Source of the DNA: Hypomyces perniciosus | Taxonomy: Eukaryota; Ascomycota; Sordariomycetes; Hypocreales; Hypocreaceae | Length of the DNA: 64,000 nt | Direction: 5' to 3' | NCBI GenBank assembly: GCA_008477525.1 | Contig: SPDT01000005.1 | Location: forward strand, 3,224,001 to 3,288,000 | Shown here: one piece after another, positions 3,001 through 62,640 of the stretch | Position numbering within the stretch: the stretch's first letter is position 1 | How the letters are laid out: the number at the start of each line of letters is the position of its first letter | The notes under the pieces: model-generated | The model's input: only the letters and a program-made list of their open reading frames with translations | Told to the model about the DNA's origin: nothing | Database searches by the model: none | Position numbers and translations under genes: made by a program

Positions 3001-6000
3001 CTATTTGCTAGCCGAGGATGATGCAGAAACTGTGTTCCATGGCTGCAAGATCCTCGCACGTCTGCTTGTTTCTCACGGATCAGCTTATACCTCGAAATTT
3101 GCTGGTAAATCTGGTGGCTTTACGGTCATGGCGAACCGCCTGAAAAGATTCTGGGATATGCCTTCTCTCTGGACCATTACCTTCTGCATCCTTTTCGGAC
3201 TCGACGTCGCAGATATCGATTTGAGTGGCGATTTATACAATCTCCTGGAGAAGTTCGAGAAGCGCAAAGTGGTATATCCTGATTCGTTGGTTATCATAAC
3301 GTCGATGCTGCAGCATGGCCTAAAGGAAGTCATGAAATATCAAGATGACCCGGACTCTCCAGCAACCAACGTCGCCCCATCTCAAGGCTTCCCCAAACCA
3401 ACCTTGACCTTGAATACCAGACCACGGGCAAGCTCCGTAGATCTGGCCAAAGCCCTAGACACTCGACGTACGTAAGCCTGATACTCGAGATGGATTGACT
3501 TCTCTAACTGATTCGACAGTGACATTTTCCCGCGACAGCGAGAGGGTAAGCAGCCATGCTGTGCTTCTCCAGAGAGCCATTGGACTTTTGCGGGAACTTC
3601 ATGCACGGTCTGCAGAGTTTAGAGACTTTGCTCTCAATTCAGAGTGGATTCGTCTACTACTGGCTGCCCTGTACCCGGTTATTGTCAGTGCGGACGCCGT
3701 TACTCCGGATGTAGAATTGAACTCTCGAGACTCGGCCCTGACTTTTGAGGGTGGCGACGTGATTATTCGGCCTATTGGCGGCGGCTCCGCGCCCTCCCCG
3801 ATTGTGCGTACGAGTAACATTGATCTCATACCATCGCCACAGTCAACACCACCCAAGGGGACACCTCTTCGAAGAGCCTCATCATTTGTTCTTCTCACAG
3901 CGCAGAAGGCCACTCCAGAATCAAGACATCCTGCCTCCTTTGCGCCGAGGCCGTCATCGTCCCAGCAAAAGACGATCGGTCAGGGCATTGGTGGCTCCAT
4001 CACTGATGGCATCGTAGACCTGGTCATGAGAGTGTTCATGGACCAGATTTTAGCTCGAAAAGAGTTTTCCGGATTCAGTCTTTTTGTCAAGGTGCCCCCT
4101 GGATTCCAAGAGCACCAGGCATACTTTGAGTCGCACATCCTTAAGAAAGTGATTGCTGAAACAACGAACAATATCCAAGAGAACCAAAAAGCAATATGTG
4201 AGCCTAGAGTTATCACAAACCTGGCCAGACTCTGTGTTCACCTATGCGAAGCAATGTTCGAAGGTTGGTTCATGAACGGGGCAGAAGCGATGATTGACTT
4301 CATCGGCATGCTTTTGGAATTTCTACAAAGACCAGATATTGCAAGTTTGAAAAGCGTCCGTCTATGTAGCCAGGCCATCACGACAATCCGCAGCTGCCTT
4401 CTGAGGACTATCTTGTTGAAGCTCTCCGATTTGGATGACCATCAAACAACCGAACCAGATGCCAAGGAATTCATGAACAAGCTTGCGTATTGGCAAATGT
4501 CCATCCTTGGCTGCTTCGGACCAGATGATGAATACCTCAAACTTTTCTGGTATCAACTCTACACGAAGCTTATTGATGGCAGGATGTCTACCCGGACAGC
4601 TGCAGCTAATTTCCTGCGAGTCATTCTTGTACAAAAGCCTGAAGAATCTGTGGCCGTGGTCCGTTCCTTCATGACACCGGATCAAAGGCAACTCGTCCGA
4701 GACTTCCAAAGGCTCACAGAAATGGATGACGAAACTTTTGTCATCTGGGTCGGCCAACATAGAGCGTCCCTAGACTCTCTTTTCTTTGGCAGTATGGCGA
4801 AGACATGGGAAGACTTCGTTAAATCGGAAAATAACCGAACGTTTGAGACTGCAAAGATACGCCTTTCGAAGCGCAAGGAAAAGCTGAGGGTTTGGAGTAT
4901 CGAAATGACCAACATGGATAAAATACTCCTCAATCATGAAATCGGTAACAGCGCCTGGATGAAGAGTATATACAACACGGAATACTTCAGATACCAGCGT
5001 TTGATGCAGGACCAACAGGATGATTTGGCATTCCTTACCGCAACCTATAGAAAGATGGAGCGAGATCTGCGGCGACCTGGTGCTGTGTTCAGTGAATCCG
5101 TGACGCCAAAGTGGAAGCTGGATCGAACAGAGGGGCGCAACCGTATGCGACTGCGGCTGCTTCCAGACTCTTCTGGAAACGAAGAGAAATACCGACCAAA
5201 ACCAAAGGGAAGCCAGACATCGACCACACCGTCCCGAGCCAGCACAGCGTCTTCCACTACCGCCCTAAGCCCTGCAGAGCCACCAACGACTCCTGCCAAG
5301 GTGACAACGCAAGCCAACATCAACCTGGACGGTACCACGAATAGAGCATCTCTTCGTGCCGAGCCGGAGTCAACATCGGATCAGAATGATGCCGGATTCG
5401 CTGCCGAAGACGATTTCGAACTTGTTGATGACCCGAATGAGCATAATGAAGGTGATGAGAACTTCGAGGACAAGAACCGCAAAGTTATGCGACGCTTAGA
5501 ACAGGGCGAACAAGTGCAGGCGGCGTACAATATTTCTCGTGTCACTGGTCTCGAGGCATGCGAAGGTCTCCTCATTGTTGGAAAAGATGCGCTCTACATG
5601 ATGGACAACGTGTTTCAGTGTGCGAATGGGGAAATTGTAAACGTGTGGCAAGCTCCGCCTAATGAGCGCGACCCGTTTACTCAAGTCGTCACTGGTGCGA
5701 AGACCTTGGAGAAGCGACAGAATGCTGGTAATAGAGAACAGGAGTCAAGACATTGGAGATGGCAAGACGTGATCAGCATTTCTAAGCGTCGATTCCTCTT
5801 CCGAGATGTCGCAATCGAGGTGTTCTTCACCGACGGACGGAGTTACTTGTTAACAGCAATTAGCACTGCGGTCAGAGATGTTCTCTTTGCAAAGATGCTT
5901 GGCAAGGCACCCCATACCAACGCAGCACATGCGCTACCGAACCCAGAGGACGCTTGGAGGCTAGAGATGCTTAAGGGATTCGAAGAGTCCCCACAAGGCT

Positions 6001-19804: not shown

Positions 19805-21418
19805 TCAGTTCAAGAACAGCTTCAAGTTCCCGCCCACATTCTTCAAATCCAACAAAAAGGTATCATGTCCAAACAAACTCGTCTCCTCGCTCAACTCCAC
19901 ATGAGTCACATTCCTATTCCCCCCTAAGCGCAACGACTCAGCGATTTCTCTTTGCTGCCACGCGGGGAACAAGATATCGCTCGCCACGCCCATGACCAGC
20001 GTGGGGATATCGCGCACGGGCGATAGCCCTAGGACTAGATCGGCGGGAGGACGTGAGGATCCGGGGACCTGGGGCTCTCCTGGCGTGTCGATTTGGGACT
20101 CGGGTTGTTCTTCGTAGGGCTCCGTGGGTAGGGTAAGACTGCATTGCAAGTCCTGGGGGGTAAGTGTCCCCAAGGCGATGTCTTTCTCGCGCGAGGATCG
20201 CCGGGTGAGAGAGGATAATTGGTTCTCGCGGCCGAGGTCAAAAAGGTCCATTGCTTTGCTCACGTAGAGCAAGCTGTTCGGATCGTAGTTGAGACACCAC
20301 TTCTCACCCGCATGATCCAAATACGTCTCAATCAAGAAATCTGGACACAGCGCCGGCGGCTTGCTCGAGTCGGCTCTTCTTCTACCGAACCGCTGCTCCC
20401 ACTCTGGTCCCGAGCGGTACGTCACGGTAGCAATCTCCCGTGCAAGCTTCATCCCTGCGTGCGGAGGAACCTTGCCGTAGTAGAACCCGCGGTTCCAGTT
20501 TGGATCCATCATGAGGACCTGGCGCTGGGTGTGTCTCATGGCGATGCTGTAGGGATGACTCCTTGCGCAGCCGCTGATGGTGGCGATGCGACCTACGCGC
20601 GATGGGAACAGAACGCCTGCGGCGAGGGATTGCATGCCGCCCATGCTGGATCCGACGCTGGCGTAGAGCTTTTCCACGCCGAGGTGGTCCAGGAGACGGA
20701 ACTGGGCGCGCACCATGTCCTCCATGGTCAGGATGGGGAAACGCGTGGCGTAGCGCTCGCCGTTGCCTGGGTCGATGCTGCCCGGACCAGTTGAGCCGTA
20801 GCAACCGCCGATGACGTTGGTGCAGATGATGTGATACTTGTCTGTGTCTAGCGGAGCTCCGGGGCCGATGAACTTCTCCCACCAGCCTGGCGCGGGATTG
20901 CTCTCCGTAGAGTGGGCATGCGACGACGCAGAAAGGCCAGTGTGGAGGAGAATGACGTTGGATTTGTCGCCGTTCATCTGACCCCAGGATTCGTAGGCAA
21001 TGTTGAATTCCGGGAGGATGCCGCCCCAGTCGAGAAGAAAGGGTTTTTTGCAGTGGTAATGGAGTGTCTCGCCGGATGTGTATGACGGCTCCGGGCCGCT
21101 GCTTGAACCGGGGGAGCCGGAGCCGGTAGCAGTAGCGGCGCCGAGTTTAGCGGACCTGCTCTCCATGGCGTCTAGACAAGGGAAGGCCATTGCTGGGTTT
21201 GAAGCAGCTCCGGACTTGCGGGCAGCGGAGGAGTGGAACTGATGATGCCGTGCTGCGGCGCCATGGTGATGGCTCCGGCTCCGGTCTCGGGTCTGGGAAT
21301 AGGATTGTAGGAGGAGCGCAGCACTGCGACTTGAAGAAGAAGAAGATGGTGATGATAATGATGATATCGCATTGGGCAGCCGACGAGCTGCGGCCTTTAG
21401 AGGCCTTTGCGACCTCAT
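19805..21418 (-). CDS. cysA: Mitochondrial homoserine/serine O-acyltransferase, CysA type
   Basis: Alpha/beta-hydrolase-fold acyltransferase of the MetX/homoserine O-acetyltransferase superfamily; it acylates serine or homoserine on the way to cysteine/methionine. Single exon, 537 residues. The N-terminal 75 residues are rich in Arg, Ser and Ala with few acids, a likely mitochondrial presequence. Catalytic features: oxyanion/substrate segment '[14 protein letters not shown]' (about 204-217), nucleophile Ser258 in 'GSSMGG', Asp in '[11 protein letters not shown]' and His in '[10 protein letters not shown]' near the C-terminus. The '[14 protein letters not shown]' form resembles the A. nidulans CysA (serine O-acetyltransferase) and fungal/bacterial serine acyltransferases more than classical Met2. 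Substrate and acyl donor (acetyl- versus succinyl-CoA) remain inferred. A low-complexity insert lies before '[18 protein letters not shown]'. Confidence 0.88.
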
Positions 21419-48000: not shown

Positions 48001-49548
48001 ATAACCTACTAGTAATATATAATAATATTAAAAAAATAACACTAAAGAAAAGGGTAATTAAATAGCTAGGTATTTTCTTTAATTAAAAGCTTAGCTTTAA
48101 GATATATATTAGAAAATAAGCTATAAAGGCCTATATAGTAATAAATATGTTATATAGTATTTTAAACTTTATTTAAAGGGCTACTTTATATTTTATACAC
48201 TAAATAATTTATATATATATAAAATTAATACTTTACTATAGATTTAAAGTATAATATAAAGGCCTAGATATATATAAAATACAATATCTTTTTAGCTATA
48301 TAGCTATAGTCTTTAAAATAGCTATAAAGGCTATTTTCCCTATATAAAGGATAACTTTTATATTAATTTTATATAAAGAGAGTAAGATCCTTTTAATAAT
48401 ATAGCTGTTTAATACTTAAAAGCTTTAATTTACTATTAAACTATTATTATTAAATAACTAATATCCTTTTACCTATAGGATTAATTAAATTAATATATAT
48501 AGATAAACTATAGTTATACTTATAATAAAGTTATGGTAAACTATATAATTTACTAGGAGTTATTTAAAACTAGCCTTTTTTTTAAATTAATTAGAATTTA
48601 AAACCTTTATTTCGGCAGTAAAGTTAAAGCTGTTAAAGAGTTTAATAACTGGATAGCTATAGTGGCTCTTTAAGATATAATAGTATTTATAGACAGCTTA
48701 TACCTTATTATAAAAGCTGTTAGCTATAGCTTTTTAATATAGCGAGATAGTAAAGAGGTTTTAATAGGATTTAGCCGATTTAGCTTAATAAAAGTATTTA
48801 ATAGCGAGGCGGCTAAGGCTTTAGAAAGACTTAAAGCTGCTTTAGCTAATAATAATAATATAAAGGATATTACTGTCTATCTAGATAATATAGCTGTAAT
48901 ATACTATCTAAAGGGTATACCTTTAGATTTATTATAATAAATCTTTATTGAATTTTAAAGATTAAAGAGTATATATAAAGGAAATATATATATTTAATAA
49001 TACTTTAACTATTAAAGGATATAAGGCAATAAAGCTATAGACTAGTTAGTGAACTTAAGCTATAAATAACTAAAACTATTTAATGCAATATTTATATTTA
49101 CTTTCCTTTAATAGGAAGTTAAGGCAAGATTAAGGATTAGCTTTAAAAGCTAATAGAAAGAGAATATACCTAATATATATTAACCTTTTAAGCTAACAGT
49201 AGACTTAAAATTCCTTAAAGAACTAATAATCCTATAAAAGAGAACTTTATTATTTATTAACTGCTAAATCCTATTATAAAGACTTTATAGAATATTATAA
49301 GTGCTTTTAATATAAAGATATATTAATAACCTGCAGTTATAGTAGAAAAAAAGTATATAACTATATCTTTTATTACAGAAAGATTAGTAAGATATAATAA
49401 TAAAGATTAGCCCCTTTAATCTATAAACTAACCTTTTATTTATTAAGGTCTGGCTATAATTACTTCCTTTAAATAGTGCAGGCCTTTAGCTTTTTTATTA
49501 AAATATACCTGCACTATTAAAAAGCTTAATTAATTCTAATATTAATCT
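45059..49548 (+). mobile_element. RIP-degraded Tad/I-like LINE
   Basis: Conceptual reading through stops gives a zinc-knuckle ORF1 trace (about 45,390-45,500), endonuclease-like sequence (about 46,000-46,600), a reverse transcriptase box 'YIDNIVF' (about 47,838), RNase H with 'FIDSLY' and 'EAAKALERLKAA' (about 48,680-48,850) and 'VYLDNIAVIYYLK' (about 48,873), then a Cys-rich tail (about 49,330). This order, ORF1 / EN-RT-RNase H-zinc finger, defines the Tad1/I group. The left end is interrupted by copia A; the right end abuts the copia B LTR at 49,554. No intact ORF. Confidence 0.75.
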
Positions 49549-49553
49549 TAATC

Positions 49554-50133
49554 TGTTAAAATAACAAGGTTATACTAAACCTTATTTAAGTGCAGCTTCT
49601 AGGAAGGTGTACCCAACGCAGCAATAAGGAAACGACTAAGAGTCTAGTTGGGTTAACAATGGATAAACAATTGAATTGTAACTGAACTAATAGCTAGAAA
49701 GCTATAGAATATCTAGTAATATGCGGCTGGTGTAGAAGTGATTGTATAAACAATAGCTTTGTCTTCTACAATAGTCCTCCAACCTAATAATAGGTGTATG
49801 GTGGCAGAATTGGGTTTGTGGCTGCATTCCTATTTTCCGTAAAATTTATTTGTATGTAAAATCGGTCAAATCGACTCACGGCCATATAAACGGGAAACCA
49901 TTTTGGTCAGATTTTTCACAATAGCCATTATACCCATTATATTAAGTCTAGGGTAGGCGGGGTAGCTGATCCTAGCTTAATTGTTATCGTTAAGGATAAC
50001 AGAAATTTCCTGACTTACACCGAAGTTCCTCCGGAACTTAGTCTTAGCGTCGGGCCTAATTCCAGGTCTAGCTAGAATAGGAAGGTTACCCAATTACACA
50101 GAAATCCTTGCTTTTTAGCCCTCCTTTTTAACA
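49554..50133 (-). repeat. 3' LTR of copia B
   Basis: 580 bp with inverted ends TGTTAAAA...TTTTAACA. Adjacent on its 5' side (minus strand) is the purine-rich tract AGAGGGAG. It aligns over its whole length with the LTRs at 54,772 and 57,092. Confidence 0.93.
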
Positions 50134-51785
50134 CTCCCTCTAGAATAGATACTATCCTATATGACTTTAAAGTAAATATAGGATCTAGATATAGGAAAGT
50201 AACTAAAACATAAAAAATAAAAAGGATAGCTAATATAGCTAAAGATAAAATAATAAAGATAGCTAATAGCTATAAAATAGCTAATAGCTATAAAAAGGGT
50301 AAGAACCTTAAGTATATACCTTAGGTAAAATTTTGAGATTAAGGAGACTTATAAAATTCCTTAATTTTAGACCTAGAAAAGGCTTAGTAAGCCCATCAGT
50401 AACCATTTTACTGGTTTCCAGATAGCTGACTATAATAACGCTATTTTTAACCTGTTCCCTAATATAATTAAACTGCAATAGAGTATGTTTTGTTCGATTA
50501 TGAAGGGTAGGGTTATTTGAGGTAGAAATAGCACCTTTATTGTCATTAAGTAAAGAGATTGGCTGTCTAATTGGTCAATCTACCTCTTTATATAGGCCAA
50601 TAAGCCACTAAATCTCCCTAGTAGCTTCTATAAGAGCTATAAACTCTGCTTCTAGCGTAAAAAAACAAATAGTTAAGCCCCTTTTTAATTTCCAGCTAAT
50701 TAGCCTATTAGCAACTATAATAATATAGCTATAAGTCGATTTACTTAATTCTTTATCCCCAGTAAAATCACTATCGCAATAACTAATAGGTATAGGACTA
50801 GATTTTTTAGTATATTGAATAGCTAGATCCTAAATACTATTTAAATACTGTAATAGGTTACGGGCTGCGTTTAAGTGCTCTTTATAAGGGCCTTGAAATT
50901 GTCTAGCTAGCCACTAGACTAGAAAGCTAGTATTTACTTAAATATAAATTACTAAATAGATAATAGTACTAATAATAGCTTGAAAAAGCTTGGTATTAGC
51001 TTTATCTAGTTTAGTTGTAGTTTTATTAGCTAAAATAGAGGGCTGCAGGGGTAATTAGATAGGCTTAGAGTTTTAAAGGTTAAAAAACTTTATAGCTTCA
51101 GTAATATACTATTTCTGGGAAAGCTAAAAAAGGCCTCTTTTTCTATCCCTAACTATTTAAACCCCTAAAAAGAAAAAGGCAGGGCCTTTATCTTCTATAG
51201 CATAGACTTTATTAAAAGCTAGCTTTAGCTAGGCTATAGCTTCTTTATCTGCTCTAATAAAAAGACAGTTATCTATATAAGTGACAATAAAAATACTATT
51301 ATTTAAATTATAGAGAATAGCAGAGTTAGAAATTAAAGGATTATATTTTAGTTTATTTCCTAAGGCTTGTAAAGCCTGTTGCCATTCTCTGGGGGAGTGT
51401 TTCAGGCCGTAAAGAGCTTTCTGTAACTGAATAACCTAATCTATGTCAGGGTTATAACCCAGCTTTCTAAAAATAGACTTAATCTTAGAGGAAGCTTGAC
51501 TGGCATAGTCTTTAAATTCTTTAAGGAAGTTGAGGAAGATAGTTTCTTTAAGTATCCTGTTAAGGAATGCACTAATAAAGTCGATTTGTTCGATTTCCCA
51601 GTTATAGATAGTGGCTAGGGCTAATAGGAGCCGCCAAGTAGAAGGAACAGCCGTTAAGGCGAACGTTTAGTTGAAATCTATTCCTTTTAGTTGTTGGAAG
51701 CCCCTAGTAACTAGCCTAGCTTTAAATTTAACTTTTAAAAGGTAAAGTTAAGCTTTATATTAAAAACTAATAATAAAGAAACTAA
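49554..51785 (-). mobile_element. 3' half of Ty1/copia 'B' (RT C-part, RNase H, PPT, 3' LTR), inverted
   Basis: On the minus strand: reverse transcriptase from 'FKARLVTRGFQQ' (about 51,750), 'KALYGLKHSPREW' (about 51,400), 'TYIDN' box (about 51,280), RNase H 'CDSDFTGDKE' (about 50,770), 'LEAEFIALIEA' (about 50,650), 'NDNKGAIS' (about 50,550) and 'VTDGLTKPF' (about 50,390), polypurine tract 'AGAGGGAG' and the LTR. The part upstream of 'FKARLV' is missing here but present at 57,673-61,432. Its outer flank TAATC (49549-49553) is the reverse complement of the flank of the 5' half. It is less RIP-mutated than copia A. Confidence 0.88.
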
Positions 51786-52591
51786 ATAGAAAATCCTTGC
51801 CTTAAGCCTAACTATAAAGGCCAGCAGCTTAAAAATCAAGGAAGTATATATATAAAGGAGTTTTTTTATATAAGGTATTTTTAAATACTATACTGACACT
51901 TTAAGCACCTTCTTTATTAATGCGTTAATTTTAATTAAGGCTTAAGGGAGCGCTAGGTCTAAAAAACCTTTAGTCTTTTACTAGAAGGCCCTTTTTAATA
52001 AAACTATTAATACCTGCTATTACTTTATCTCTTTTAAAAAGGAAGTTAGGACAGGCTTTAAACTCTTTAACTGCTTAGCCTTAGCAGAGCTTTAGACTTA
52101 AAAGGTATAGGTAACCTAATATAATAAATGCCTTGGCTTTTATAACCTTTAAAGATATACTAGAACTATATAATATAAAAAGTGCAGTAAGCCTGCCTTT
52201 TAATACACTAATAAAGATAAAAACTATAATAACTTTATTCAATATATTAACTGCCTTAAACTTTACTAGTCTAATACTTTAAACTACTATATATACTTAA
52301 CTATTAAAGATAATGTAAAAGCGTATACTATTAAAGAATAATGTAAAAGCATTAAAGAATTTAAGATTTAGTAATTTTAAAAAAAGAACCCTGCCCCTTT
52401 TACCTTTAAGCCTAAAACCAGTGCGCTTGAAGGAGGAGCTTTTTAGGCTACTTTAGCCAAATCTTTTACTACTCCCGCTTTTAAGGCCTAGATTTAAAGA
52501 CCCCTCCCTTTAAGCAGGACAGCACCCTTTACCCCTATAATAAAGCCCCTTTAAAATAAAATTGACTTAATAAATATCCTTAATAGCTTAT

Positions 52592-52855
52592 TGTTGGGTT
52601 GAGTAGGCCGGGGCCCTACCGCTTATCAGCGCTAGGAAGCTCTTATCTACTATGTAAGCAGATACAAGCTGACACACACATCGCATAAGCGATGTGTCAG
52701 ACTATGCAGGCGCTTACAGCGCCTGCACACAGCTTTTTCTTTGTGTTAGCTATGTGTATATATAGTGAGGCCACTACGGCATATTCTCTTTCATAGAATC
52801 AAGCTTCGTTTCCCATCTCTCTATGCTCCATATAGCTGTGCCGCGCTCCGCCACA
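52592..52855 (+). repeat. Solo LTR of copia A family, nearly free of RIP
   Basis: 264 bp, TGTTGGGTTGAG to CCGCCACA, flanked by the perfect target duplication CTTAT (52587-52591 and 52856-52860). It keeps CA-rich stretches such as GACACACACATCGC that are TA in the copies at 37,973 and 44,788. Contains two adjacent hairpins (52669-52700 and 52706-52726). Confidence 0.95.
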
Positions 52856-53748
52856 CTTATTAAAAGAAAGCTTACTAGCCTGCTCTATAATAAAGGTTAC
52901 TGATTTTAATAACTTTATAAATAATGCCTTAAAGGAATCCCTTAAAAGAGATAAACCCTATAAATTTAATCTATAAACAATAAACCTTAGTAAAACTGCT
53001 AAAAAAACTCTGGCCTAAAAATCTTTTAAGCTAATATAAAAAAATAAAAATAGTATTATAATATAGCCCTTTTATTAGCCTAAAAAGACAGCTTTAATAT
53101 TACATTTATCCAAAAGCTATAAATTTACTAGGATACTATAATATTTAAAAGATAAATAAAATCTTACTTTAGCTTTTAAGTATTTAACCTATTTAACAAT
53201 TAAAAGGAGACTAGACCTTTTATTTTTATTTATATTAGAAAATTACTAAATCTACTATATTAATAACTCTTGCCTTTAAAACTAAAAAGCGACTATATCT
53301 GCTAAATGGAAGTCTATGGCTATATTATTATTAATGTCTACTGTAAGGCTTCCTTTAATACTATAATAGAAACCCTTAAAAGGTAAGGTTAGCCCCTTTT
53401 AAACTTAATTATTATAAGAGACTTTAATATATTATACTAGATATAATAACTAGGCCAAGTCCTAGACACTATAGGCAATAGACTAGCTAAATAGGCGGAT
53501 AGATATAACCTAATCCCTGCCTTTATAAACGCCTTTATAAAGGATTCTAGAAAATATATTAACCTTGTTTTTGTTAACTGCCTTATATTAATAACGATTA
53601 TAAAAAACCTAGATATAGGCTTAAACTACTATACAGTTACTACTTTGCTTTTAAGCCTTATTAGGCTAATAGCTAATGCAGGAAAGAAATATATCCCTTT
53701 TAAGAGTTTATAAAAGTTTAGCCAGCTAATATATATATATGCCTAGTT

Positions 53749-54151
53749 TGTCGAGAGGGAATTGGCACTCTAAAACACATACACAACACACACATACACC
53801 CACACACAACGACTGGTATCGAGCGCGGGAACCGCGCTCCTGACAGAACCACGAAGCGGCGATTGAGTAATGTAGGGGCTAAAAAGATACTGCGGATCAT
53901 TTGATCATAATGCCGGCAGCCAAAAGCAACCAACGGTTACCTTCATACGCCTCAGCGACTGTGTTCTCACAGGTAGGGTTATATGTTGAAGGGGAAAGAA
54001 GGTTGTTGTTTATTAAACTAGGTCTATCTGTATATCTTTATACTCCCGTGCTTTCCTAATCCAGTAGCTGCTTAAATAAGCAGCCAACCTTTCTCGGGTA
54101 AACTAACAAGAAAAAATGCTGGTGCATTGGGCATATCAGTTACCCCCGACA
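53749..54151 (-). repeat. Solo LTR-like insertion (gypsy-type ends TGTCG...CGACA), free of RIP
   Basis: 403 bp of ordinary composition inside the LINE. Ends TGTCG/CGACA extend to an 11-bp perfect inverted repeat CTAGTTTGTCG/CGACAAACTAG. On the minus strand it begins TGTCGGGGGTAACTGATATG, has a TATA-like AGTATAAAGATA, and ends CCCTCTCGACA, which fits an LTR promoter/terminator layout. It retains a long CA-rich run (53,776-53,813), the prime RIP target, so it escaped RIP. The exact target duplication is ambiguous (CTAG on both sides). Confidence 0.7.
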
Positions 54152-54771
54152 AACTAGCTCCTCCTAGAAGTAAATATAACTAATCTAACTAAAGGAGACC
54201 TAGACGCGGCCATATAAGCACTTTAAAGACTCTTTGCAGACTATATATAGTCGGCAGGCAAAAAGAGATAATAAAGCAGATATAGCGCCCTTTAATAGGA
54301 TAAAGACTGCCAGATAGCCTACTTAGCCTATATTATAGCACCCTTTAAGACTAATAAATAGATTAAGGCAAAAAAGATACTATATAATGCAGTTAGATAT
54401 AAAAAACGCAATCACTAAGATAAAATTATAGCTAAAGCTAGCCTAGGCAAGGGCATCTAATAGATAGCTAAATAGCATAAAGCTATAAACTAATTCTAAC
54501 CCCCCCTCCTAATAAATAGCAGTAAGAGTATCTTAAACCTTAGGGAGTAAACAGCCTTCTTTAAAAAACATTTACTGCAATAAAAAAAAGTAGAAAAAAA
54601 TATTAAAAACCTATAAAAACCTTAAATATTAAAGAACCTTTAAACACTATAAAATAAGACAGTTATTAAAAAAAAGGCAAAAAAGGCTATCATTAAAGTA
54701 GGGAATACTATACCTAGCGCAGACAGTACATCAGTTACCCTTCTATATTATATATAGCCTACTATTAAAGA

Positions 54772-55352
54772 TATTAAAATAACAAGGTTATACTAAACCT
54801 CATTTAAGTGCAGCTTCTAGGAAGGTGCACCCAACGCAGTAATAAGGAAATGACTGAGAGTCTAGTTAGGTTAATAATGGATAAACAATTGAATTGTAAA
54901 CGATCTAATAGCTAGAAGCTATAGAATATCTAGTGTATATGCAGCTAGTATAGAAGTAAATTGTATAAACAATAGCTTTGTCTTCTATAATAGTCCTCCG
55001 ACTAGATAATAGGAATACGGCGGCAGAATTGGGTTCGTGGCCCCGTTCCTATTTTCCGCAAAATTCATTTATATAGGAAATCGGCCAAATCGACTCACGG
55101 CCATATAAACAGGAAACCATTTTGGTTAGATTTTTCACAATAGCCATTGTGGCTATTGTATTGAGTCTAGGGTAGGCGGGGTAGCTGGTCCTAGCTCAAT
55201 TGTTATCGTTGAAGATAACAGAAATTTCCTGACTTACACCGAAGTTCTTCTGGAACTTAGTCCTAGCGTCGGGCCTAATTCCAGGTCTAGCCAGAATAGG
55301 AAGGTTACCCAAATACACTAAAATCCTTACTTTTTAGCCCTCCTTTTTAACA
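54772..55352 (-). repeat. Solo LTR of copia B at a deletion junction
   Basis: 581 bp, minus orientation, ends TATTAAAA...TTTTTAACA. The flanks AAAGA (left) and GATTT (right) do not match, and the LINE reverse transcriptase core that should surround it is missing. Confidence 0.9.
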
Positions 55353-56380
55353 GATTTAAATAGCCTTCCTTTTCCTAAATAACTTATTAGTTATTAACAG
55401 GTTATTTAGTAAGCCCCCCCTATCTATATAAAGAGTGTATATATATTTCCAGAAACTAGTATAAAGTATCTTGCCTTATAAAACCTTTATTTTATAGGTT
55501 TTAGGATATAAGGACATTATAGGCAATAAATAGGCTAACTGTTTAGCTAAATAAAGCGCAGCTTTCCCTACTGCGCTATAGAATTAGGCTATAATTATAT
55601 ATATTAAAAGATAGATTAAAAAAGAAGTTATAAAGGTAAAGGAGTGGGATTAGCTTAATAAAACCCTGGAAAGCTATAAACAGTAAACATTTAGGGCCTT
55701 AGCCTCCCCCCCAGAACTTAAACTCCTATGCCTTATCCTCTACAGGCTCTTAGCGGAAAGATCAGGATATAGGGACTTTTAGGAATACTATAAATACTTT
55801 AAATACAATAAAAAGTCTATCTGTAAGTGCAGCAAACCAAAGAGGCAAAGCCACTTTATAGAATACAGAATAGTTAAGCCCTTCCTTCTAGATATCCCCT
55901 TAAAAGAGACCCCCCTCTTTTACCTATTTAGACCTACAGGTAACAAGGCCTTCCAGAAACTAATAGAGGAAGCGGACCCTTATAGCCTTCCCTTAGTAGA
56001 AATAAATTAACACTACCTAGATTAACCCTTTTTCCTTTATAAATTAAAATTTAGCGAATAGTAGTGCAAGCCGCTGGCTCCTAATATCCTATTACCTATA
56101 AGGGATTTATATAACTAGTTTACTTAATGCACGTAAATAATAAAACAAACAAATAAACAAACTCTAGCCTTAATACCCTCTTAACCTTTTAAATAAAAAA
56201 CTTCAAACTTCCTTAAACTCCCTTATACTTTAAATATTAACTAGACTAGTATTATTACTATACCTTTAACTTTAAGGAAGAGAGTATATTTAATATTTAA
56301 TAAAAAGTAGTACTTTAACTAGCCTTATTAGAAAAAGGTATTTTTATCTCTTTATCTATCTCTTTATATACTAATATTTA

Positions 56381-56752
56381 AATAATAAGGTTATACTAAA
56401 CCTTATTTATATATAGCTTCTAGGAAGCTGTATATAATGCAGTAATAAGGAAACAACTAAGAGTCTAGTTAGGTTAACAATAGATAAACAATTGAATTGT
56501 AACTAAACTAATAGCTAGAAAGCTATAGAATATCTAGTAATATACAGCTAGTGTAAAAGTGATTATATAAATAATAGCTTTATTTTTTACAATAGTCCTC
56601 CGACTAAATAATAAGTATATAGCGGCAGAATTAGGTTTATGGCCGCATTCCTATTTTCCGCAAAATTTATTTATATAGGAAATCGGCCAAATCGACTTAT
56701 AGCTATATAAACAGGAAACCATTTTAGTTAGATTTTTTATAATAGCCGATAA
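56381..56752 (-). repeat. Truncated, older copia B LTR
   Basis: Aligns with the first 370 or so plus-strand bases of the LTR at 49,554 (for example 'GATAAACAATTGAATTGTAA', 'GGAAATCGGCCAAATCGAC') with more TA substitutions. It stops at an (AAT)n run (about 56,753-56,771). Confidence 0.85.
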
Positions 56753-57091
56753 TAATAATAATAATAATAATATCCTATTAATATCCTATAGCAAAGGCCA
56801 CTAATCCCAGTAAAGTAAAAGGATATACTATACTAGGTTTAACTATAATATTACTAATATATATATAAGCTCCCCTATATAGCATTTTATCGCCTTAATA
56901 GGTATAGTCTTCCAGCTCCTCTCCTATTAGCAGGTTAAAGAGACGCGCAAGTCTCGCGTAATATATTAAATAACTAAGGTTAGCCTTAGCTAAAGGGTTA
57001 GCCTTTATCGATTTATAGGCGACTTAGTATTAAGCCGTAAATAAATCTTTTAAAGGATAAAAGAGAAATAAAAGAAAGAATTAAAAGATTA
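56753..57091. other. AT-rich spacer with (AAT)n run
   Basis: An (AAT)n microsatellite followed by unassigned degraded sequence up to the 5' LTR of copia B. Its last five bases, GATTA (57087-57091), are the presumed target duplication of copia B. Confidence 0.5.
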
Positions 57092-57672
57092 TGTTAAAAA
57101 GGAGGGCTAAAAAGCAAGGATTTCTGTGTAATTGGGTAACCTTCCTATTCTAGCTAGACCTGGAATTAGGCCCGATGCTAGGACCGAGTTCCGGAGGAAC
57201 TTCGGTGTAAGTCAGGAAATTTCTGTTATCTTTAACGATAACAATTAAGCTAGGATCAGCTACCCCGCCTACCCTAGACTTAATATAATGGGTATAATGG
57301 CTATTGTGAAAAATCTGACCAAAATGGTTTCCCGTTTATATGGCCGTGAGTCGATTTGACCGATTTTATATACAAATAAATTTTGCGGAAAATAGGAATG
57401 CGGCCACAAACCCAATTCTGCCACCGCACACCTATTATTAGGTCAGAGGACTATTATAGAAGACAAAGCTATTGTTCATACAATTCACTTCTACACCAGC
57501 CGCACATACACTAGATATTCTATAGCTTCTAGCTATTAGATCGTTTACAATTCAATTGTTTATCTATTATTAACCCAACTAGACTCTTAGTCGTTTCCTT
57601 ATTGCTGCGTTGGGTACACCTTCCTAGAAGCTGCACTTAAATGAGGTTCAGTATAACCTTGTTATTTTAATA
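57092..57672 (+). repeat. 5' LTR of copia B
   Basis: 581 bp, TGTTAAAAAGGAGGGC to TTATTTTAATA (the terminal CA is now TA). Left flank GATTA. Confidence 0.93.
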
Positions 57673-57689
57673 GGTTATAAGCCTGGGAG
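57673..57689 (+). other. Primer-binding site of copia B
   Basis: GGTTATAAGCCTGGGAG, directly after the LTR. It is compatible with priming by the anticodon arm of initiator tRNA-Met, as in Drosophila copia and Ty5, if one G-to-A change at TG is allowed. Confidence 0.65.
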
Positions 57690-60600
57690 AGTTTTCCTTG
57701 GGTCTCTATTAGTGGATTTTTCTAGTGGTTACAGCACTTCCCCTAGCGCTACTACAGCACTTATAGCGGGTTTTTACAGTACTTATCCTAGTGCTTATAT
57801 CAGCATTCTTGGATTTTGGCTACCAGAAGCTATTCCTAGGCTTCTACTGTAAATACTGTTACAGTTATAGTAATACTACTTATATTACATTTTCTATATA
57901 CTATATAGTATATTCCCTATTTTTATAGGATATAGGTCTGACATTAGCAGTATAAGTCGACCTATTAGGGCTCCTAGCAGCCCTATTTCCTCAATTAAGG
58001 ATAATAGCTCTCCCCAGCAGCAAAGGGATTTATTTATTCAGGTGCAGAATATAGAATAAGAGCTTCAGGTATAGAGGGCTCTGACTAAGACAGTAAAGGC
58101 ATAGTTAAAGGGTTAGAATAACACTATAACTTAGTTATTTAATACTCTAGCTAGCCTAGCTGCTGCTATATTAAAGCTTTAATAATAGACTACTAGTCTA
58201 ATATAAGTTGACCCTATAGCCCTTATTTTAGTGCTAATATAGGCTTTTACTCCTATTCCTATACTAGTCCAAGTTCTATTTATATCTATTCCCTAACCCT
58301 AAACTACTATTTCTACTTTAAATAGTAGTTTTATTAAAAAGGCATTAAAAAAAGTCTATAGCTTTCCAGAAAGCTATAAGCTAGTAGGCCGTGATAATTT
58401 TAATTAGTGGAAACAGTCTTTAAGTATTATATTAAAGGCTATAGATTATTATGCTTTTATAGAAAATCCTATAATTACTAATTCTTTATCTGATTTAGAA
58501 CAGGCCCTATTATTTATGCTAATTAAGGATAGCTTAACAGCTATTCCTGCTGTATTTATTGCTTGGATTCAAAGCCTAAAAGAAGTATTTTTAGCATTAA
58601 AGAGATAATATAGCTACTTTAATACTTTATAGAGAGATTCCCTTTATAGGGAATTTCATTTATTAAATTATAGTAATTATAAAAGATTTTTGGCTAAATT
58701 TAATGCCACTTTTAACAGTTTATTAGCTAAGCTAGCCATTTTAAAGGTTAATATTAATATACTAGACCAAGTAAATCAATATTTAAATGCCTTAGAAAAG
58801 ACTTTTCCTTAATGGGCTAAATGAATTAAAGGAACTATTAAATCTAATAAAGCTATTAGGCAATCTACTAAAGGTTTTAACATTCAGTTTCTTATAGCAG
58901 ATATATTAGAAGAAACTAAGAATCTATCTTCTACTGTATATAAAGTTAATAAAGCCTTAGGGCTTTTTAAATCCCTTAATTAAAAGCCAGCTTTTAATTC
59001 CTAAAAGAGGAATAGAAATCAAAAGAATTAAGGAAATCAAAAGAATTAAAAGAATCAACAAAACCAGAAGTAAGCTATAGATAATTCTGCTTTTACTAGT
59101 ATATATTATCTAGCTACTAGAGGGCATAGCTCAGAAGAGCTATTAAAAGAGTCTTCTATTAAATCTATTAATAGTTTAAATAGTAATCTAGATCTTCTAT
59201 AAGCCCTAAACGCTAAAAAAGGCAAAAAACCTTTTAAGCCTTCTAAATCTTTTAAAAAACCTAAACCCCCTAGACTTCCTATTTAGGATAGTCTATTATA
59301 TAATACTGGATCTATAGTTTATATAGTTAATTCTAGGAAATAGTTTACAGACTATAGACCTAATAACAGGGAATTAGGCGTTGTTTATATTGGCGGGGGT
59401 CTTATTACATTTAAGGGAATAGGTATAGCCACTTTTAATATCCTTAATAAGGATAATAACTATAAAAAGATAATATTACTAAATACCCTCTTTTACCTAT
59501 AGCTAAATGTTAACCTTATCAGTAGTTTAAGGCACTATTAAGCTGGAGGATATATTTAATATAATACTCTTTTTACTAAATTAATATAGCCAATAAGGCT
59601 TCTAAATCCCTTAAAATATAGTTTTTTCCTTACTATTAAAGGATATACTATACTATACAGCTATATAAATAGCTATAGAGCTTATAGCTCTATATAGGTT
59701 TAAATTCCTGCTATTAGTAAAGAAAAGGCTAAGGAATATATAGCTATTCCAGAAGTAACAGCTTCGAAAAAACAACTAACAAGATCTAGTCCTAGGCTTA
59801 TTAAAAAGAATAATCCTAAGGGAAAGGATCTCTCTAAACTCCCTAAAACCCCAGGCTAAGTAGAGGATCAGGGGCCCTGTATGCCCCTATTGCCTGAGGA
59901 AATAGGGGGGAATAAGCCTATAGAGGATACCCTCGTGGAGGAAAGGCCCTGTATGCCTAGGGAATCCTCTATTACTGAAGATCTAGAGGTTATTAAGCCA
60001 ATTAAACCAAAGGGAGATACTATTACTAATAGTACTAGCTACAAGCTGCTGAAGCTAGCCCTCTTATAGCATAAAAGACTAGGTTATATTAGCTTAAGTC
60101 TACTGAAGAAGACGGCTAAAATAACTACTGGAATTCTTAACTTTAATTCTATTAAAGAGACTAAATTCCACTGCCTAGCGTATAATAAGGGAAAAGCTAT
60201 TAAGAGGCTTCATTTAAAGTTAATTCCTAATCCACTAGCCTCTCTAGATCGTCTAAAAGCTAATACTTTCTCTATAAAGCCAGTGCCTTATAATAAAGCC
60301 CCTATTGGTCTTTTAATTATTAATAGAAAATCAAGATATAGGTGGCTATTCCTTTTAAGAGATCGTAGTGGACCCACCCTTCTAGCTACTATATAAGGCT
60401 TTATAAATAGCCTGAAAACGCAGTATAACCGGTATCTTAAGGAATTTTATTATAATGGCGGAAAGGAAATTAATTAGGAACTTTAGACCTGGTTCTTTTC
60501 CTTAGGAATTACATATTCCTATAGTAGCCTTTACATTTATGAACAGAATGGTTTAATAGAACGCTTTATTAGAGTTTTATTAAATAGGCTATAGGCTACT

Positions 60601-61432
60601 ATTATAGCGGCTAACTTGCTACTATATCTCTAGAATTTTATTATTACTGCAGTTCTTAAATTAGTTAACTATACAGCCATTACTAATAGAGACTCTACCC
60701 TTTATTAAGAATTATATAAAGACCTAAACCTTAATAAAGATTATAAGCCTAATCTGTAAAGATATAGGATTATTAGCTTTTATTGTAAAGTATTCGTTCT
60801 GCAAGAACGAAAGGCTAAGGGCTATAAATTAGCCCCTAGGACTGAAACTGGGAGACTGCTAGCAGTTTTAGGTAGTAATACCTATTTTATTTATATTCCA
60901 ATTAAATATATAGTCTTTAAATTATTAACTATAAAGCTGTATAAAGATAAGATTCCTAAACTTTAAATCCTAGAGCCTACTATAAGTTAGGATAATAAGG
61001 AATTAAAGGGAGAAATAGAGCTAGATTTATTAGATTAAATGATTCCTAGCTTTTAGGATATTAATCCCTTACTCCTTAACCTTATTCCAGAGGGAATACC
61101 CACTGCTATTCCCCTTATTTTTACACCAGTTATATAAGACTCTGCTGTTATAGAGGATCTAATAGATATAGATATATCCCACTTTCTCTATAATAGCGTT
61201 AGAAAGCTAGCCTTTCCAGCTACTGCAGCACAAGACCCTTAAACGCTTAAGCAAGTACTTTATAGTCCTAATAAAACTAAGTGGCTAGCAGCGATTTATA
61301 GCGAATTTAACCAGCTAGTCAAACAATATACCTTTACTTTTATTAAGCGTAATAGTATTGTTAAAGGCAGGAATCCTATTACTAGTCGATTAGTTTTAAA
61401 GACTAAAAAAGACTAGAATAATAGAATAGTAA

Positions 61433-62640
61433 ATAATATTTTTATTCTTAAACTTTCCAATTTTAATAATTTCCTGCCTAGCCTTAATAGCAGTAATCTT
61501 CCTCTAGCTATAGTTTAAAGGGACTTAAAGAAAGATTTTATTATTAGGTTTTTTAAAAGTTATATTTTATTTAATTATATTATTTTTTATAATAAAAGCT
61601 AGCCTTTTATTATTCTATAAAGTAAATTTATTTTCTTTTCCTATTAAAAGATTTTTATTTATGCCTTTAACTATAATTATAGCCTATATAACTCGCTTTA
61701 AGCTATTAGTCGCTAGCAAAGCGCCTAGGTTAGTTTAAGTTAAAGGGTAGGGTTTAGTTTATTATTGCTTATTATTTTAATAGGTTTTTTTACTGACTGG
61801 CTATATAGTTATTAGTTAGGCTAAAGGGGGATTCCTGCTTAACTTCTTAAAGTCTGTAAGGGCCTTTAAAGAAAGGAGGCCTTTAAAAGCGTTAATAAGC
61901 GCTTTATTTGCCTGCAGGGCAGCTAAAAGATAGTATTTTCTTTAATATTTAGCTAGGCAGTTATCAATAGCTTAGGTTACTGAGAATAAAACTTCCTGTC
62001 TAGCTTTCTAAATTGCATTAATTTCTTTAATCTGCGCGAAGATTTTATAAGCTGCAGTAGACTGCTTGCTGTTATTAAAGGCGGGTGCTTTTATCGGCCT
62101 ACTTTAAAGGGAGGAAAAGAGGCCTTCCTGGGTCCCTTTTAGGAAGAGAGAGACGTTGGGTCTTATATTAGAGCCGAAATTAAGTCTAGGGATATCAGTT
62201 TCGATGCATTTGTTATCGATATAGCGTTTCTTAGGCGTAAGCGGGAAGACTATAGTCCCTCTTTATCCCAGGAGCGAAAGAGTGCCCTCCTTCTCAAGTC
62301 GCTAGACTGCTGCCTGCCCGGCAGCAGTAAGGTTTAGTTATCCCTAGTTCGCTTAGAGTCTAATAGTATTTGCTATCTTTCTCTAAGTGCCTAGGAGGGG
62401 CGAGGGAGCGTTATTGAGCTTGTTTTTCTTGATAGCTAGTTAAGAGGTTGTGAATTTTAGTGAGTAGGCACCTAAAAGGTGGGGTACCTATAGGTGTAGG
62501 AGGGAAGCTTGATTAAGGCTAGAGTAGCTACTAACCTAGAGTCTATTATAACTGTATGCTGCGAGGCGATTAAGAACTAGTTATAAGGTGCTTTACTTAG
62601 TAAGATAAGCAAGGTAGGTAAGGATGGGCTACTCTATAGC
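61433..62640 (-). mobile_element. Degraded repeat, possibly the displaced 5' part of the LINE
   Basis: AT-rich to about 62,000, then mixed. Reading the minus strand gives coding-like but stop-broken stretches (for example 'YIDNKCIETDIPRLNFGSN' about 62,170-62,225 and 'IKEINAI' about 62,010-62,030). If the inferred inversion is correct, this would be the upstream part of the LINE now at 51,786-56,162. The identity itself is weak. Confidence 0.35.

What the first reader, a model, noticed from the sequence alone, without database searches (positions are those of the whole stretch)
49549..61432. One copia element cut in two by a 9.6-kb inversion, proven by matching target duplication
The minus-strand half (49,554-51,785) begins in reverse transcriptase at 'FKARLVTRGF' and ends in a 3' LTR with a polypurine tract. 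The plus-strand half (57,092-61,432) has the 5' LTR, PBS, gag, integrase and RT up to 'NNRIV', i.e. exactly the missing part. The outer flank of the 3' LTR is TAATC (49549-49553) and that of the 5' LTR is GATTA (57087-57091), its reverse complement. Re-inverting about 51,786-61,432 makes a single minus-strand element of about 6.57 kb with direct TAATC duplications on both sides. Neither half has a second LTR of its own. The LINE and its nested LTRs ride inside the inversion.
Basis: partly seen in the sequence, partly recalled or inferred. Interest (0 to 1): 0.82.

Follow-up and report, generated by a model that had tools for sequence, protein, structure and literature searches.

The report
Small inversion splitting two fungal retrotransposons
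In a mutated, gene-poor stretch of a fungal genome, about 9.7 kb of DNA was flipped around, cutting two neighbouring dead mobile elements in half; the event is unusually well documented but is an ordinary kind of rearrangement.

Summary
The copia halves are 49554-51733 (minus) and 57092-61430 (plus), not ending at 51785/61432. Other copies of the element run straight across the split (35 of 36 loci searched, 32 distinct junctions). A second element, LINE-like, is cut at the same two points: its 5' 1.08 kb lies OUTSIDE the flipped segment at 61428-62511, the rest inside from 51731. Copies of it also run across the join (18 of 20). Both target duplications are split as predicted: TAATC/GATTA for copia, and a 14-bp ACTCTAGCCTTAAT for the LINE. 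The repeat in which the copia sits exists unoccupied elsewhere: of 27 copies with both flanks adjacent, 25 overlap by exactly the 5-bp target. The flipped segment is 51734-61427 (9,694 bp). Both junctions share only 3 bp (AGT/ACT), and nothing is lost or gained. The best mechanism is two double-strand breaks rejoined by end joining in a RIP-degraded AT-rich island of a probably hypocrealean fungus, not ectopic recombination between LTRs. Misassembly is unlikely but cannot be excluded without reads. It is an ordinary event with exceptionally clean evidence.

The parts
48553..49553 (+). Left flank: part of a RIP-degraded repeat ('X'), interrupted by the copia insertion; its last 5 bp are the target duplication TAATC (49549-49553)
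   Evidence: 41 other matches in a capped list, 26 of them reaching position 1000 or 1001 (49552-49553)
49554..50133 (-). 3' LTR of the copia-type element (580 bp)
   Evidence: Self-match to 57092-57672; LTR comparison
49554..51733 (-). 3' part of the copia-type element: RT from just before the KARLVTRG motif (51731-51733 shared microhomology), RNase H region (by position), polypurine tract, 3' LTR
   Evidence: 36 of 47 other matches end at 2188 = 51736; junction sequences; RVT_2 matches to two pieces
51731..51733 (.). Left inversion junction: crossover inside ACT (AGT on minus strand), the 3 bp shared by copia and LINE
51731..56160 (+). 3' part of the LINE-like element (now plus strand), with nested insertions at 52592-52855, 53747-54153 and 54772-55352
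   Evidence: right end set by the target duplication
56161..56174 (+). Target duplication ACTCTAGCCTTAAT at the LINE 3' end
56768..57091 (-). Right flank of the copia insertion: continuation of repeat X; its outer 5 bp are GATTA (57087-57091)
   Evidence: 39 other matches in a capped list; 27 adjacent to left-flank matches, 25 with a 5-bp overlap
57092..57672 (+). 5' LTR of the copia-type element (581 bp)
57092..61430 (+). 5' part of the copia-type element: 5' LTR, gag and integrase regions (by position), start of RT up to NNRIV
   Evidence: 31 of 54 other matches end at 4347 = 61433, most of the rest being LTR-only or truncated pieces; junctions
61428..61430 (.). Right inversion junction: crossover inside AGT
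61428..62511 (-). 5' part of the LINE-like element, left outside the inversion
   Evidence: 40 other matches, most spanning positions 25-35 to about 1112; joined to the 3' part in other copies
62512..62525 (-). Target duplication ACTCTAGCCTTAAT at the LINE 5' end (reverse complement on the plus strand)
   Evidence: the 14-mer occurs in the window only here and at 56161
51734..61427 (.). The inverted segment (9,694 bp, plus or minus the 3-bp microhomology at each end)

Best explanation
A copia-type LTR retrotransposon had inserted (minus strand) in a repeat, and a LINE-like element (minus strand) lay just to its right, at the edge of a RIP-degraded AT-rich island. Two double-strand breaks, one in the copia RT region and one about 1.08 kb into the LINE, released a 9,694-bp segment that was rejoined in the opposite direction. 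End joining used or tolerated 3 bp of microhomology (AGT) at both junctions, without loss or gain of sequence. The result is two split elements, each with one half on either strand. Shown: a single inversion with these breakpoints explains all four features (both bodies, both target duplications). Inferred: that breakage and end joining did it, and that it happened in the organism and not in the assembly.
For: Copia body continuous across the join in 35 of 36 loci, 32 distinct junctions, and in one more copy. LINE body continuous in 18 of 20 copies. Unoccupied target: 25 of 27 copies of repeat X with both flanks adjacent overlap by exactly 5 bp. 14-bp LINE target duplication in the predicted inverted arrangement, unique to those two places in the window. 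The two LTRs are reciprocal best matches, 95.9%, against a between-element mean of 90.9%. Junctions show 3 bp in common and no extra bases.
Against: No reads and no sister strain could be examined; the genome tool says it holds no relatives. The count of transversions plus indels between the two LTRs (5) is not extreme: 84 of 544 between-element pairs are as low. Three bp of microhomology in AT-rich DNA is weak evidence on the repair pathway. The continuity counts come from capped lists of the best-scoring copies.
Confidence: 0.9

Rival explanations
1. Assembly error: the segment was placed in the wrong orientation by the assembler.
For: The region is full of repeats, and the two LTRs form inverted repeats. 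No reads were available.
Against: The breakpoints are not in the LTRs or any long repeat shared by the two elements but at single points in unrelated sequences sharing 3 bp. A false flip would be expected to switch inside long inverted repeats, not twice at such points.
Confidence: 0.05
2. Ectopic recombination between inverted repeats (LTRs or whole elements), as in Drosophila Galileo inversions.
For: Four LTR copies of the family lie within 8.1 kb, in both orientations in the inferred pre-inversion order. The same genome shows what looks like such an event elsewhere: exchanged duplications of two opposed copia copies on C5.
Against: That mechanism leaves chimeric whole elements at both breakpoints with exchanged duplications. 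Here the junctions join copia RT to the LINE, with no homology beyond 3 bp.
Confidence: 0.01
3. Replication-based template switching (FoSTeS/MMBIR) with two strand switches at microhomology.
For: Both junctions have 3-bp microhomology; nearby inverted LTRs could fold back.
Against: No duplication, deletion or inserted template at either junction. Two switches would have to land reciprocally to the base, which a two-break inversion gives without further assumptions.
Confidence: 0.08
4. Two independently truncated copia copies that happen to lie in opposite orientation.
For: Broken copies are present in the genome.
Against: Requires complementary break points to the base, the same target site in repeat X, and the same coincidence in the LINE.
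Confidence: 0.002

Closest known systems
Simple two-break inversion repaired by non-homologous or microhomology end joining
   Same: Reciprocal junctions, no long homology, no net loss
   Different: Only the location is special: both breaks fall inside transposable elements, so their structure records the pre-inversion order
Transposon-mediated inversion by ectopic recombination (Galileo, Drosophila buzzatii 2z3; passages of PMC2775673 seen)
   Same: Target duplications and element structure at breakpoints used to reconstruct the event
   Different: There two chimeric copies in opposite orientation flank the inversion with exchanged duplications. Here each of two unrelated elements is cut once and no homologous copies were recombined
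Twin-priming 5' inversion of LINE insertions (recalled, no call)
   Same: A LINE whose 5' part is inverted relative to its 3' part
   Different: Here about 5.3 kb of other DNA, most of it half a copia element, lies between the LINE parts, and the copia is split at the same points

Membership tests
Simple two-break inversion | Both junctions reciprocal: re-inversion restores both ancestral sequences | tested here: met
Simple two-break inversion | No long homology at the breakpoints | tested here: met
   3 bp only
Simple two-break inversion | Real in the organism (reads, other strains) | not testable with these tools
   no reads; genome reported as having no relatives
Inversion by ectopic recombination between elements | Two homologous copies in opposite orientation at the breakpoints, with exchanged duplications | tested here: not met
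   junctions join copia RT to LINE
Ty1/copia LTR retrotransposon | LTRs with 5-bp target duplication | tested here: met
   TAATC/GATTA; 5-bp unoccupied target; exact 5-bp duplications in 9 of 17 other elements with both LTRs read
Ty1/copia LTR retrotransposon | Copia-type reverse transcriptase (RVT_2) | tested here: met
   Two of the six stop-free copia pieces tried, both from the 3' half: E 9.1e-8 (above the cut-off) and 4e-6 (below it); the other four gave no RT or RNase H match
Ty1/copia LTR retrotransposon | Integrase upstream of RT | tested here: inconclusive
   5' half gives only a sub-threshold GAG-pre-integrase match, E 0.015
LINE (non-LTR retrotransposon) | Variable-length target duplication, A-rich 3' tail, no LTR | tested here: met
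   14-bp duplication directly after an A-rich 3' end
LINE (non-LTR retrotransposon) | Endonuclease and RVT_1 domains | tested here: inconclusive
   Three short stop-free pieces gave no Pfam match to a LINE domain; one had a weak, sub-threshold match to an unrelated phage family. About 1.64 kb of this copy is missing (coordinates)

The most novel reading that the evidence does not exclude
Before the flip (inferred order) the copia 5' LTR and two other LTRs of the family beside and inside the LINE were inverted repeats, the nearest pair 324 bp apart. By arithmetic on the coordinates, pairing between them would bring the copia and LINE break points to within about 0.7-0.9 kb of each other and could have favoured the inversion. 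That would mean nested, inverted LTRs drive small inversions in RIP-degraded islands without themselves being the breakpoints.
Probability: 0.1. Interest if true: 0.45.

Novelty: new member of a known kind. Interest (0 to 1): 0.3.

Why it matters
Small inversions inside repeat islands are hard to see because there is no gene order to compare. Here two elements, two target duplications and an unoccupied target elsewhere in the genome reconstruct the event to within 3 bp from a single assembly. The same logic (element halves on opposite strands plus split or exchanged target duplications) could be run genome-wide to count such inversions and their junction types in RIP-degraded compartments; a second, different-type candidate turned up on C5 merely from the 17 elements read here. 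No ORF of 220 aa or more lies in or beside the flipped segment, so no host gene was seen to be affected.

Tried and rejected
LTR divergence as a proof of common origin: transversions plus indels do not separate this pair from unrelated pairs (5; 84 of 544 between-element pairs are as low). Total identity does better (5 of 544). I use it only as support, because RIP adds transitions to every copy.

Searching the genome with 56000-57091 for the right flank failed because LTR matches filled the list. The search limited to 56769-57091 worked.

One match that appeared to extend 35 bases beyond the left breakpoint, which would have spoken against a breakpoint there, was fetched and is an ordinary continuous copy.

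Pfam on stop-free pieces of the LINE gave no LINE domain.

Host identity: one intact host protein (window 19805-21418) matches best a protein of Stylonectria norvegica (82% over 92%), then Ilyonectria, Mariannaea and other fungi that I recall as Hypocreales. The species was not identified.

Papers: in five searches no listed title or abstract start reports this event; no search by locus was possible because the species is unknown. I saw passages of PMC2775673, the outline and abstract of PMC6861252, and listings only for the others.
Full report
WHERE IT IS. The window is a stretch of contig C22 of a 44.0-Mb, 23-contig genome. A host protein in the GC-balanced part matches best one of Stylonectria norvegica (82% over 92%) and other fungi that I recall as Hypocreales, so the host is a filamentous ascomycete; the species is unknown. 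From about 31 kb the window turns AT-rich. Dinucleotide ratios there are those of repeat-induced point mutation (RIP): TA/AT 1.46 and (CA+TG)/(AC+GT) 0.40 in 32-49 kb, against 0.65 and 1.29 in the gene region. The finding lies at the right edge of this island.

THE COPIA-TYPE ELEMENT. The minus-strand piece starts with an LTR at 49554 and the plus-strand piece with an LTR at 57092. Searching the genome with each piece gave 47 other matches for the left piece and 54 for the right, counting fragments, in lists that score only the best candidates. Of these, 36 of 47 end at 51736 and 31 of 54 at 61433; the rest are mostly truncated or LTR-only pieces. One match seemed to run 35 bases past 51736; fetched, it is a copy continuous across the join. 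I searched 36 fetched loci of other copies (all of L001-L038 except the two that are the window itself) with the last 200 bp of each piece separately. In 35 of 36 the two pieces follow each other in one orientation with a 9-bp overlap, part of it fortuitous. L037 is the exception: the second piece was not found there. One locus has two junctions and four pairs of loci show the same element, so there are 32 distinct junctions. Reading the sequences side by side, the true shared stretch is 3 bp, AGT: this element reads T-AGT-T there (other copies have AGTT or AGTA) and the LINE, in the same direction, reads A-AGT-A. The reading frame NNRIV-KFKARLVTRG has no gap. Length of the two parts together: 6,516 bp. 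Of six stop-free copia pieces tried, two from the left part match RVT_2 (E 9.1e-8 and 4e-6; only the first passes the Pfam cut-off); the right part gives only a sub-threshold GAG-pre-integrase match.

A SECOND ELEMENT IS CUT AT THE SAME POINTS. In 18 of 20 other copies fetched around that place the two stretches are contiguous: 17 with the 6-bp overlap that includes ACT, and one with a trimmed alignment but visibly continuous sequence. In the remaining two, the downstream stretch was not found at the cut-off used. So the LINE is not a passenger: its first 1,084 bp stayed outside and the rest was flipped.

TARGET DUPLICATIONS. LINE: directly before its 5' end (62512-62525, reverse strand) and directly after its A-rich 3' end (56161-56174) stands the same 14-mer ACTCTAGCCTTAAT, found nowhere else in the window. 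The two copies stand in opposite orientation, exactly as expected after the inversion.

THE UNOCCUPIED TARGET. The left flank of the copia (48553-49553) is part of a repeat with 41 other matches. The DNA outside the 5' LTR (56769-57091, reverse strand) has 39 other matches; both lists are capped. Comparing the two lists, 27 matches are neighbours on the same strand, and in 25 of them the left flank and the right flank overlap by exactly 5 bp; the other two, with alignments ending short, project to 6 and 11. This is the target site before insertion, with one copy of TAATC, and it shows that the two flanks, now 7.5 kb apart and in opposite orientation, come from one site.

LTR COMPARISON. The two LTRs are 95.9% identical and each is the other's closest among the 37 LTRs aligned (17 other elements with both LTRs, plus three from the window). 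Between-element mean identity is 90.9%, and 5 of 544 between-element pairs reach the same value. Transversions plus indels (5) are less telling: 84 of 544 between-element pairs are as low, and 13 of 17 within-element pairs. This is support, not proof.

MECHANISM. One inversion of 51734-61427 (9,694 bp) accounts for all of this. The junctions have 3 bp in common and no added or lost bases. There is no long homology at the breakpoints, so recombination between LTRs or whole elements, the mechanism shown for Galileo in Drosophila (passages of PMC2775673), does not fit here, although a candidate for that other mechanism exists in the same genome (next paragraph). Two breaks rejoined by end joining is the simplest account; replication template switching cannot be fully excluded. 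The inversion is younger than both insertions, because it cut both. Whether it came before or after RIP could not be told.

A CONTRASTING CASE FOUND WHILE CHECKING. Of the 17 other elements with both LTRs read, 9 have exact 5-bp duplications. Two of the remaining eight carry each other's: on C5, the plus-strand element at 2088851-2095473 has TATTT before its 5' LTR and ACTAT after its 3' LTR, and the minus-strand element at 2099992-2106531 has ACTAT and TATTT (inner flanks re-read in L075 and L076). The 5' LTR of the minus-strand element and the 3' LTR of the plus-strand one differ by 1 transversion and no indel, against 4 transversions and 2 indels between the two LTRs of either element; the other cross pair has 3 transversions and no indel. 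By total identity the picture is less clean: one of the four LTRs is closer to an unrelated copy. This is the exchanged-duplication signature of an inversion of the roughly 4.5 kb between them by recombination between the two elements. It was not followed further.

LIMITS. No reads and no relative were available. A false flip by an assembler would be expected to switch inside long inverted repeats, not twice at a 3-bp identity in unrelated sequence, so I put misassembly at about 5%.

VERDICT. It is a well-documented small inversion in a repeat island, a new instance of a known kind.

Noticed in passing
G000 C5:2088851-2095473 (+) and C5:2099992-2106531 (-); loci L031/L069 and L014/L062, L075, L076: Two copia copies of the family in opposite orientation, 4.5 kb apart, carry exchanged target duplications (TATTT...ACTAT and ACTAT...TATTT), and the crosswise LTR pairs fit better by transversions and indels (1+0 and 3+0) than the pairs within each element (4+2 and 4+2). 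Looks like a second small inversion, made by ectopic recombination.
   Followed up: partly
54772-55352: A solo LTR of the same copia family sits in the LINE without a target duplication (AAAGA versus GATTT), and about 1.64 kb of LINE that other copies have at that place is missing (coordinates). This looks like a deletion by recombination between LTRs of two nested elements.
   Followed up: partly
52592-52855: A 264-bp insertion in the LINE with TG...CA ends and CTTAT on both sides, GC 0.485 and little RIP signature; probably a solo LTR or a very small LTR element, short enough to escape RIP.
   Followed up: partly
53747-54153: A 407-bp insertion in the LINE with inverted ends CTAGTTTGTCG...CGACAAACTAG, GC 0.455, without a strong RIP signature; looks like a MITE.
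   Followed up: partly
56375-56767: A truncated LTR of the same family (83-86% identity to the other three), inverted relative to the 5' LTR at 57092 and 324 bp from it, ending in an AAT-type simple repeat.
   Followed up: no
L016 positions 1500/1501 (G000 C23:3034677/3034678): The inner part of one copia copy in minus orientation ends exactly where the 5' LTR of another begins. Probably a nested insertion.
   Followed up: no
L018/L066, L013/L061, L027/L073: Three further copia copies have quite different 5-mers outside their two LTRs, so more recombinant or rearranged copies may exist; two others (L036, C5d) differ by one RIP-like transition and L033 by one transversion.
   Followed up: no
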